Shown here piece after piece: positions 20,169 to 22,293 of a stretch of DNA of 44,817 bases. Position 1 is the first letter of the stretch. Each line of letters opens with the position of its first letter. The notes below the pieces were generated by a model. That model was not told the DNA's origin. It searched no databases and worked only from the letters and a program-made list of their open reading frames with translations. Source of the DNA: Bacteroidetes bacterium 4572_128 (GTDB lineage Bacteria; Bacteroidota; Bacteroidia; Bacteroidales; 4572-128); the NCBI GenBank assembly GCA_002084355.1, contig NBLL01000079.1, positions 1 through 44,817 of the forward strand, in the 5' to 3' direction. Made by a program: the position numbers and the translations under genes.

Positions 20169-20215
20169 AAAAATTTCAAATTCCAAGTTCTTAAAATATG
20201 GAATTTGAAATTTTT
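20169..20215 (+). terminator. Terminator of the giant gene
   Basis: AAATTTCAAATTCCA (20171-20185) pairs perfectly with TGGAATTTGAAATTT (20199-20213), extendable by two A-T pairs, around a 13-nt loop and followed by a T-run. It sits right after the stop codon. Confidence 0.75.
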
Positions 20216-20221
20216 TTCAAA

Positions 20222-20880
20222 AAAAACGCCCAAAATTTCAACATTTTTTATTTTAAAATAAAAAATTTTTTTTTCAAATTCGTCCAAATTTTTAATATTT
20301 TTAAATTTCAAAATAAAAAAAATTTTTTTTCAAAAATCATCCAAAATTTTAACATTTTTAAATTTCAAAATAAAAAAAATTTTTTTTCAAAATTCGTCCA
20401 AAATTTTAACATTTTTTAATTTCAAAAATCGTCCAAAATTTTAATAATTTTTAATTTCAAAAATCGTCTAAAATTTTAATATTTTTAAATTTCAAAATAA
20501 AAAAAAATTTTTTTTCATAATTCGTCCAAAATTTTAACATTTTTTAAATTTCAATTAAAAAAATTTTTTTTCAAATTCGTCCAAAATTTTAATATTTTTT
20601 AAATTGAAATTAAAAAAATTTTTTTCAAAATTCGTCCAAAATTTTAAGATTTTTTAATTTCAAAATTAAAAAAAAATTTTTTTTTCAAAATTCGTCCAAA
20701 ATTTTAACATTTTTAAATTTCAAATTAAAAAAAATTTTTTTAATAATTCGTCCAAAATTTTAATATTTTTTAATTTCAAATTAAAAAAAATTTTTTTAAT
20801 AATTCGTCCAAAATTTCAACATTTTTTAATTTCAAATTTAAAAAAAATTTTTTTCAAAATTCGTCCAAAATTTCAATGTT
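20222..20880 (+). repeat. Large degenerate repeat array, left part
   Basis: About 13 copies of a unit whose core is TTCGTCCAAAATTTTAACAT, followed by TTTTTAAATTTCAAATTAAA and an A-run/T-run junction. Cores are near 20228, 20280, 20338, 20396, 20431, 20466, 20523, 20578, 20632, 20692, 20748, 20805 and 20863. Unit length is mostly 52-60 nt, with two short units of 35. The array stops abruptly where the inverted end of the toxin cassette begins and resumes at about 21900. Confidence 0.85.
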
Positions 20881-20957
20881 TTTGTGTTTTGGGTGGTGTT
20901 TTCAGCCATTATAAATTTATGATGGGTAATTTGTGCGGTGAAAACACCGCATCGCAG
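20881..20957 (+). mobile_element. Left inverted end of the toxin/immunity cassette
   Basis: The inner 27 nt (20931-20957, starting TTGTGCGGTG and ending GCATCGCAG) are a perfect inverted copy of 21830-21856. The outer part (GGTGGTGTTTTCAGCC near 20892) matches the far end near 21870-21892 imperfectly. Each end carries two small palindromes: GGTGTTTTCA(G)CC outside and GCGGTG-AAAA-CACCGC inside. Confidence 0.7.
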
Positions 20958-21010
20958 TAATAATTTACTCTTCATTTTTTTATTTTTATATAAAATGAAC
21001 GAAAAAAAAT

Positions 21011-21352
21011 TTAAAAATAAAAATATATTCCAGTCTCAAAATCAATAGCATACTGAATCATTTTTGAAAATTTCTGTATAATTTGATTACTATTGATTTT
21101 CATTTGATTGATAATTAAAAAGCATTCATTTAAACGATATATTTCTGTAATACTTTCATCTTCATAATCATCAATAATTGTATCACAAGTCGTATTAATT
21201 TTATCAAATATTTTTAAATTCCATAATTCTATAAATTCATTTTCGGATAATTTCCATTCAATTAATTCTTCAGGTTTTGCCATGTCATAATCCAATGCTA
21301 AAATTGCATCTTGATTTTTCGGAACTGTAATATATCTGATATGCTCTGTCAT
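21011..21352 (-). CDS. Probable immunity protein of the toxin cassette
   Basis: This acidic cytoplasmic-type protein of 113 residues is read from ATG 21352; the TTG at 21361 overlaps the upstream stop and is less likely. There is no signal or membrane segment. I do not recognise the family. The immunity role is inferred from position: it begins 1 nt after the stop of the toxin-like gene (TAA-A-ATG), the usual tight coupling of toxin and immunity genes, and both lie between inverted repeats. Features seen are ALDYDMAKPEELIEWKLS, a DDYEDESITEIYRL acidic patch and a C-terminal aromatic end (TGIYFYF). Confidence 0.55.
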   Translation of the reverse strand: MTEHIRYITVPKNQDAILALDYDMAKPEELIEWKLSENEFIELWNLKIFDKINTTCDTIIDDYEDESITEIYRLNECFLIINQMKINSNQIIQKFSKMIQYAIDFETGIYFYF

Positions 21353-21353
21353 T

Positions 21354-21805
21354 TTATTCAAATAAAAAATGTGTTAATTGATTATATTCTGCTTGTGAAT
21401 TTCCTATAATTTTTCCATTTATAATTTTATTATTTGGTATTTTTCCATTCAAATCTAAATAACAACGTTTGCCTGTTAATTTTGTGTTTTGTATTCTAAA
21501 ATATTTTCCAGCTTTATCAACAACAAGCTGCATACCTGTTTTTTGATTTTTATAAATTGTCTTTCCTGTTTCTGTTGTTGATACTTTGGAATTTTTACCT
21601 GCAAATTTTTTAATATTTTTGTTTAAATCTGCTTTTTTCCATTACTATTATTAGAAGGTTGATTTAATAAATTCATGCAAAATATCACAACAAAAGAAAG
21701 AAAAAACATCATTGTTATTTGAGTAATAAATAATTTGCTTTTGTCTTTTGTTAAAGTTATTTTTTTTCCTAATAATACATTTATCAATTTTATCATTATA
21801 ATCAT
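21354..21805 (-). pseudogene. Toxin-like gene with N-terminal membrane segment, one-base frameshift
   Basis: The first frame (ATG 21805 or 21796) has a basic start and a hydrophobic helix (MMFFLSFVVIFCMNLL), then NQPSNNSNGKK, stopping at 21623. Adding one base in the run at 21633-21638 reads ADLNKNIKKFAGKNSK and continues to TAA 21354-21356. The distal 100 residues (GKTIYKNQKTGMQLVVDKAG, then YFRIQNTKLTGKRCYLDLNG, then GNSQAEYNQLTHF) resemble small C-terminal toxin modules of polymorphic toxins (Rhs/LXG type, 'dk.g.YfRi.d....gkr.YlDl.G ... G.sq.eyn..THF'). The match is from memory, not a search. The catalytic mechanism is unknown. The open frame runs back to a TTG at 21856 inside the inverted repeat. 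Confidence 0.55.
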
Positions 21806-21829
21806 TATAATTTTATTTTTATTAATTCC

Positions 21830-21895
21830 CTGCGATGCGGTGTTTTCACCGCACAATTATTCATAATGTCGGTGAAAACACCAACCAAGTGCAAA
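21830..21895 (-). mobile_element. Right inverted end of the toxin/immunity cassette
   Basis: 21830-21856 is the perfect 27-nt inverted partner of 20931-20957. Beyond it, GTCGGTGAAAACACCAACCA (21869-21888) corresponds to the outer palindrome of the left end. The repeat array resumes within about 10-15 nt, so the cassette plus ends (about 1 kb) sits inside the array. Confidence 0.7.
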
Positions 21896-21899
21896 GATA

Positions 21900-22204
21900 A
21901 TTTTTTATTAAAAAAAATTTTTTTCAAAATTCGTCCAAAATTTTAAGATTTTTAATTTTAAATTTAAAAAAAATTTTTTTCAAAATTCGTCCAAAATTTT
22001 AACATTTTTAAATTTCAAATTAAAAAAAATTTTTTTCAAAATTCGTCCAAAATTTTAATATTTTTTAATTTCAAATTAAAAAAAAATTTTTTTCAAAAAT
22101 CATAAAAATTTTAACATTTAAATAAAAGAATTTTTTTCAAATTCACCCAAAATTTTAATATTTAAAAAAAAACAACATTGGAGGTTTTTTTAAAACCTCC
22201 AATT
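21900..22204 (+). repeat. Degenerate repeat array, right part, ending in a palindrome
   Basis: Five more units in the same orientation as the left part have cores near 21931, 21987, 22046, 22102 and 22145. The last runs directly into a palindrome: ATTGGAGGTTTT (22177-22188) with AAAACCTCCAAT (22192-22203), a member of the AACATTGG family, which may also terminate the convergent genes. Confidence 0.75.
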
Positions 22205-22293
22205 CAATGTTTGTAGAAATATTAAAACTTTGAACGAATTATGATTTTTTTTTAATCAAAAAAAATCGGCAATTTTAAAAATTTAAAAAAAAA

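What the first reader, a model, noticed from the sequence alone, without database searches (positions are those of the whole stretch)
20881..21895. Toxin/immunity-like cassette bounded by inverted repeats inside a repeat array
A ~1-kb block carries a membrane-anchored toxin-like gene and a 1-nt-spaced small acidic gene. It is bounded by imperfect inverted repeats of about 65-75 bp with a perfect 27-bp core (20931-20957 against 21830-21856). The same AT-rich array flanks it on both sides in the same orientation, as if the cassette had inserted into a pre-existing array. It carries no transposase, so it would have to be moved in trans or by homologous recombination. A MITE-like carrier for a toxin/immunity pair would be unusual.
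Basis: partly seen in the sequence, partly recalled or inferred. Interest (0 to 1): 0.75.

Follow-up and report, generated by a model that had tools for sequence, protein, structure and literature searches.

The report
Repeat-bounded orphan toxin and immunity genes
A small stretch of bacterial DNA carries a stranded weapon-and-antidote gene pair, related to ones bacteria use against each other, sitting between two copies of a repeat found all over this genus; it looks dropped cleanly into a run of other repeats, but what moved it is not shown.

Summary
A 1,013-bp block (20882-21894) sits in an AT-rich array and is bounded by two inverted, palindromic repeats with a perfect 27-bp core. The array resumes in phase: the interrupted unit keeps 5+15 = 20 nt where intact units have 19-21. 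The cargo is a real toxin-immunity module. Its toxin domain (95 aa) is the C-terminus of RHS/CdiA-type proteins in at least 20 other genomes, each followed by a homologue of the same acidic immunity gene. Neither family is in Pfam (toxin not in NCBIfam either); the immunity model resembles Neisseria DMP12 (TM 0.69). In the window the pair is an orphan: no RHS repeats in the genome, and its anchor and toxin frames are offset, possibly an assembly loss. The ends are not private. They are two of about 58 dispersed repeats found only in this genus. Because the repeat is palindromic, 'inverted repeats around a gene' arises wherever two copies flank one. Convergent pairs enclose other cargo elsewhere, but there is no second copy of the cassette, no target duplication, no identified transposase and no clean empty site. 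Verdict: an orphan polymorphic-toxin module in a composite-MITE-like setting. Insertion as one unit is plausible; transposition is unproven.

The parts
20200..20881 (+). left AT-rich array, ~56-bp units
   Evidence: the same array in the same orientation lies downstream of the sprB-like orthologue in the sister species, without the cassette
20882..20958 (+). left palindromic element (two-armed, ~77 bp), inner arm 20931-20957
21011..21352 (-). immunity gene, 113 aa, pI 4.3
   Evidence: model pLDDT 92.8, Foldseek match to DMP12 3w1o_A E 3.4e-4, TM 0.69
21354..21641 (-). toxin domain frame, 95 aa plus stop, homologous to RHS/CdiA C-termini
   Evidence: model pLDDT 93.7
21623..21805 (-). short ORF with one hydrophobic segment (anchor), frame-offset from the toxin frame
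   Evidence: offset could be an assembly loss
21830..21894 (-). right palindromic element (two-armed, ~65 bp), inner arm 21830-21856
21895..22165 (+). right part of the AT-rich array, resumes in phase
22169..22215 (.). GGAGG/CCTCC hairpin repeat, dispersed; synteny with the sister species resumes here

Best explanation
The block is an orphan C-terminal toxin/immunity module of the RHS/CDI type, carried between two inverted copies of a genus-specific palindromic MITE/REP-like repeat. It entered one unit of a pre-existing intergenic minisatellite array as a single hairpin-operon-hairpin piece. Shown: the homology of both genes and their conserved pairing, the dispersed nature of the ends, the in-phase interruption of the array, and no detectable cassette DNA in the sister species. 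Inferred: the block arrived as one piece, moved either by a transposase acting in trans on the palindromes or by recombination between dispersed repeats. Also inferred: the immunity gene protects against neighbours that deliver this toxin, while the toxin gene itself is silent or broken here. The toxin is probably a nucleic-acid-targeting enzyme blocked by an acidic mimic-like immunity protein (inference from charge and the DMP12-like fold only).
For: The toxin domain matches the C-terminus of an RHS protein in a same-class genome (49%, E 1e-21) and of a hemagglutinin-repeat CdiA-like protein in a Moraxella plasmid (60%). It also matches 20 loci in GTDB genomes, each with the same immunity family next to it. 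Eighteen toxin columns are invariant in 15 sequences. There is no RHS repeat and no paralogue in the own genome. The ends have 58 copies with 2 or fewer mismatches against 0 for the reversed-pattern control; they occur in the one other same-genus genome, and apart from a single one-mismatch hit in one genome they are absent from 58 other order members. The array resumes in phase, 20 nt against 19-21. The sister species has the same array after the sprB-like gene with no cassette before the contig ends, and no DNA match to the cassette anywhere. Both ends share the CATCGCAG tip, whose CATCGCA part is seen in only 4 of 56 copies. Convergent pairs 0.4-4 kb apart are 6 of 9 neighbouring pairs (p 0.01), and one locus holds different cargo in the two species.
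Against: No target-site duplication, no second copy of the cassette and no true empty site: in the sister species the two flanks lie on different contigs. No mover is identified. The two ends differ from each other by an indel and substitutions. Because the repeat is a palindrome, inverted flanks carry little information. The convergent-pair count is small and weakens to p 0.08 when pairs up to 10 kb are counted. The assembly lacks 34-105-bp pieces (18 against 1 in the sister), so joins across repeats are not fully trustworthy.
Confidence: 0.5

Rival explanations
1. No cassette at all. The toxin/immunity genes are one of many gene blocks that lie between dispersed intergenic repeats, and gene order in this genus is shuffled by recombination at such places. 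The inverted flanks are a by-product of a palindromic repeat.
For: Of 20 repeat sites tested, flanks mapped to one contig in the sister only once. The window is broken into about ten blocks relative to the sister, also at places without arrays. One-armed copies join arrays at a fixed distance, 20-21 or 46-48 nt, as if they were simply the ends of arrays. Most copies are single.
Against: In the window both ends are two-armed, not the one-armed array-end type. The array unit is interrupted without loss or gain, and the two tips share a rare variant.
Confidence: 0.35
2. The repeats are ends of MITEs with an internal minisatellite (like BrickBuilt of Porphyromonas gingivalis): arrays are the inside of the mobile element and genes between two of them are plain chromosome.
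For: Fixed array-end junctions in both genomes; complete units with outward-facing ends exist, e.g. the 31768(-) to 31983(+) unit of own contig C127 in L040; the BrickBuilt paper describes a similar architecture (PMC4596501).
Against: Does not by itself explain why the window array runs on in phase across the block, nor the two-armed ends there.
Confidence: 0.1
3. The palindromes are transcription terminators or mRNA-end signals, selected at both ends of operons.
For: Strong hairpins, mostly intergenic; the left one lies just past the immunity gene.
Against: No T-run follows directly; copies sit inside arrays and in both orientations; limited to one genus.
Confidence: 0.05

Closest known systems
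Orphan cdiA-CT/cdiI and rhs-CT/rhsI modules (PMC3150448)
   Same: toxin C-terminus plus downstream immunity gene, without the delivery part; toxin often lacks translation signals; homologous to C-termini fused to full-length proteins elsewhere
   Different: not next to a cdi/rhs locus (no RHS repeats found in this incomplete genome); flanked by palindromic repeats; a short membrane-anchor ORF precedes it in an offset frame
MITE- and TIME-bounded composite units (TIME-COMP, PMC13367494, abstract only; integron-flanking MITEs, PMC10969869)
   Same: two copies of a non-autonomous inverted-repeat element around cargo, no transposase inside
   Different: no related autonomous transposon, target duplication or second copy shown here; cargo is a toxin/immunity pair rather than resistance genes
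BrickBuilt MITE with minisatellite, Porphyromonas gingivalis (PMC4596501)
   Same: Bacteroidota, intergenic, tandem repeats joined to inverted-repeat ends, narrow host range, about 20 to 50 copies
   Different: no sequence relation tested; here ends are long hairpins, unit is 56 bp rather than 23 bp, and one array is interrupted by genes
CDI transposon of Burkholderia thailandensis (PMC6350997, abstract only)
   Same: contact-dependent toxin genes on a mobile element
   Different: that element carries the CDI system genes; here only the toxin tip and immunity gene
Neisseria DMP12 (3W1O; described as an HU-binding DNA mimic, PMC5722371)
   Same: fold of the immunity protein (TM 0.69, E 3.4e-4) and weak profile match reaching the common C-terminus (E 0.037)
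   Different: 16% identity; DMP12 is described as an HU-binding DNA mimic, not as an immunity protein

Membership tests
RHS/CDI C-terminal toxin-immunity module | toxin domain occurs at the C-terminus of large RHS/CdiA proteins in other genomes | tested here: met
RHS/CDI C-terminal toxin-immunity module | cognate immunity gene directly downstream, co-conserved | tested here: met
   same immunity family next to all 20 GTDB loci, the RHS gene of G076 and the Moraxella plasmids
RHS/CDI C-terminal toxin-immunity module | toxicity neutralised by the immunity protein | not testable with these tools
   needs expression assays
orphan module | no delivery part attached or nearby | tested here: met
   no RHS repeat in own genome; genome only 73% complete
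composite MITE cassette | both ends are copies of a dispersed non-autonomous repeat | tested here: met
composite MITE cassette | target-site duplication | tested here: not met
   array unit length unchanged, 20 nt against 19-21, so no room for a duplication of more than 1-2 nt
composite MITE cassette | same unit at a second place or an empty site | tested here: inconclusive
   no second copy; array without cassette after the sprB orthologue but flanks not collinear in the sister
composite MITE cassette | autonomous relative supplying a transposase | tested here: inconclusive
   no Y1_Tnp; other transposase families not searched; no viral or plasmid copy of the ends
integron cassette | attC site with GTTRRRY/RYYYAAC core | tested here: not met
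   element consensus read directly lacks both motifs
BrickBuilt-type MITE | tandem repeats joined to inverted-repeat ends at fixed junctions | tested here: met
   for one-armed copies elsewhere; in the window the ends are two-armed
DMP12 family | shared fold | tested here: met
DMP12 family | significant sequence homology | tested here: inconclusive
   E 0.037 with a 15-sequence profile

The most novel reading that the evidence does not exclude
Paired palindromic MITE-like elements act in this Bacteroidota genus as a composite carrier that swaps small accessory modules, including interbacterial toxin/immunity pairs, in and out of minisatellite landing arrays. The toxin family is undescribed and its immunity proteins share the DMP12 fold, so DMP12 itself may be a stranded immunity protein.
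Probability: 0.22. Interest if true: 0.7.

Novelty: new variant of a known kind. Interest (0 to 1): 0.5.

Why it matters
It is an unannotated toxin/immunity family, spread over Bacteroidota and Gammaproteobacteria (with a remnant in Neisseria), with a well-predicted structure; its immunity protein links to a solved 'DNA mimic' whose role may need rethinking. It also gives a concrete case for asking how orphan toxin modules travel: the in-phase interruption of a repeat array marks both borders closely, so insertion as one unit can be tested with one relative.

Tried and rejected
Pfam, NCBIfam and PDB profile searches for the toxin: nothing above chance. The one other toxin hit in the own genome (0.019) is MutS, chance. 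RAYT/REP transposase: none. Rfam: nothing real. Integron attC: motifs absent. Viral contigs for toxin or ends, plasmids for ends, phages for the toxin: none. Structure match for the toxin: no PDB hit below E 0.1. Programmed frameshifting at the A-run near the frame offset: considered, not preferred, because this assembly loses short pieces in other genes at about 0.6 per kb. Species-specific cargo as proof of mobility: four other convergent-pair cargos are each found in one species only, but about half of all flank segments also fail to map, so this is weak.

Full report
Observation. The two 27-bp cores are at the stated coordinates and are exact reverse complements; their 16-bp centre has no chance matches in shuffles of the window. 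The ends extend to about 77 and 65 bp and fold as hairpins. The flanking array has ~56-bp units and one orientation on both sides. Measured from the CAAAATTT(T/C)A anchor to the A-run, intact units have 19-21 nt; the interrupted unit has 5 nt on the left and 15 on the right, 20 in all. So the block 20882-21894 interrupts one unit without visible loss or duplication. Random phases would give this in about 3 of 56 cases.

The ends are dispersed repeats. The own genome (2.6 Mb, 151 contigs, 73% complete) has 58 matches to the core with up to 2 mismatches; the reversed control pattern has none. With up to 1 mismatch there are 44 in the own genome and 42 in the only other same-genus genome searched (G001). 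Among 58 other members of the order a single genome has one one-mismatch hit. The full form reads TTGCGCTTGGGCGGTGTTTTCACCGACATTATAAATTTATGATGAATAATTGTGCGGTGAAAACACCGCACAGGCGCA, itself an imperfect palindrome. Any two full copies therefore present inverted arms to the DNA between them. One-armed copies most often join the array at a fixed distance, 20-21 nt (array forward) or 46-48 nt (array reverse), in both species. This resembles the minisatellite-bearing MITE BrickBuilt of Porphyromonas gingivalis (PMC4596501).

Other cargo. Convergent pairs 0.4-4 kb apart make up 6 of 9 neighbouring pairs (binomial p 0.01 against 0.25; 8 of 19, p 0.08, up to 10 kb). After one radical-SAM gene, 97% identical in both species, the two species carry different genes between convergent elements: a 400-aa protease-like protein in one and an unrelated 333-aa protein in the other. 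These cargos are found only in the species concerned. That is weak evidence, since about half of all flank segments also fail to map.

Cargo of the window. The toxin frame (21357-21641, minus) matches the C-terminus of an RHS protein with a 4-nt-overlapping immunity gene and of a hemagglutinin-repeat protein on a Moraxella bovis plasmid, with the immunity homologue next to it. A profile found 20 loci in Chitinophaga, Chryseobacterium, Gilliamella, Pantoea, Moraxella, Neisseria and others. Each has the same immunity family directly downstream (alignments). Neither family is in Pfam, and the toxin is not in NCBIfam; the window immunity protein also has no NCBIfam match. The immunity protein is acidic in 15 of 15 (pI 4.1-5.3), while the window toxin is basic (pI 10.0); not all its homologues are. 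AlphaFold models are confident (pLDDT 93.7 and 92.8). The toxin has no PDB neighbour. The immunity model matches Neisseria DMP12 (3w1o_A, E 3.4e-4, TM 0.69), with a weak profile match reaching the shared C-terminus. DMP12 is described as a DNA mimic that binds HU (PMC5722371).

State of the toxin gene. A short ORF with a hydrophobic segment (21623-21805, minus) precedes the toxin domain in another frame. Compared with G001, the own assembly lacks 34-105-bp pieces at 18 places, many inside intact genes of G001, against 1 in the other direction. The frame offset may be such a loss, a real mutation, or frameshifting; this cannot be decided here. No RHS repeats were found in the own genome, so the module is an orphan, as known for cdiA-CT/cdiI and rhs-CT/rhsI modules (PMC3150448).

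Mobility. In G001 the sprB-like orthologue (99%, intact 3562 aa) is followed by the same array in the same orientation and no cassette for the remaining ~600 bp of the contig. gldG (98%) has a different left neighbour. The cassette DNA has no match in G001. The flanks are therefore not collinear and there is no true empty site. Gene order is broken into about ten blocks across the window, also at places without arrays, and the flanks of 20 repeat sites almost never stay together. Movement by recombination among repeats is therefore a strong rival to movement by a transposase in trans. No Y1 transposase was found; other families were not searched.

Judgement. Real module: about 0.95. Ends are dispersed repeats: about 0.99. 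Block inserted as one unit: about 0.5. Transposition through its ends: about 0.25. Composite units bounded by MITE-like elements are known (PMC13367494; PMC10969869), as are orphan toxin modules; the combination and the toxin family are what is new.

Noticed in passing
window 10562, 13015, 13213, 15416, 15801, 17471, 23644, 24167, 25458, 25821; also L002, L004, L012, L034, L040, L043, L044: The own assembly lacks 34-105-bp pieces relative to the sister species at 18 places (1 the other way), breaking genes intact there, such as the 3562-aa sprB-like gene and gldG. Looks like an assembly fault.
   Followed up: partly
immunity gene 21011-21352 and PDB 3W1O: The immunity family shares the fold of Neisseria DMP12, so DMP12 may be a stranded immunity protein.
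   Followed up: partly
L164 2486-3043 (Neisseria bergeri): An orphan immunity gene next to a degraded remnant of the same toxin, downstream of a signal-recognition-particle GTPase (ffh-like) gene.
   Followed up: partly
whole window against G001: Coding DNA is mostly 90-99% identical to the sister species, but gene order is scrambled into about ten blocks in 45 kb.
   Followed up: partly
22169-22215 and many loci: A second dispersed hairpin repeat, AACATTGGAGGTTTTTTTAACCTCCAATGTT, often next to the arrays.
   Followed up: no
L075 600-730, L047: A third dispersed repeat containing CGCTTGACGCATA, in several intergenic places.
   Followed up: no
L040 (own genome contig C127), 35855-37801 in contig coordinates: A cytosine methylase gene with an adjacent ORF that may be its restriction partner, close to repeat elements.
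   Followed up: no
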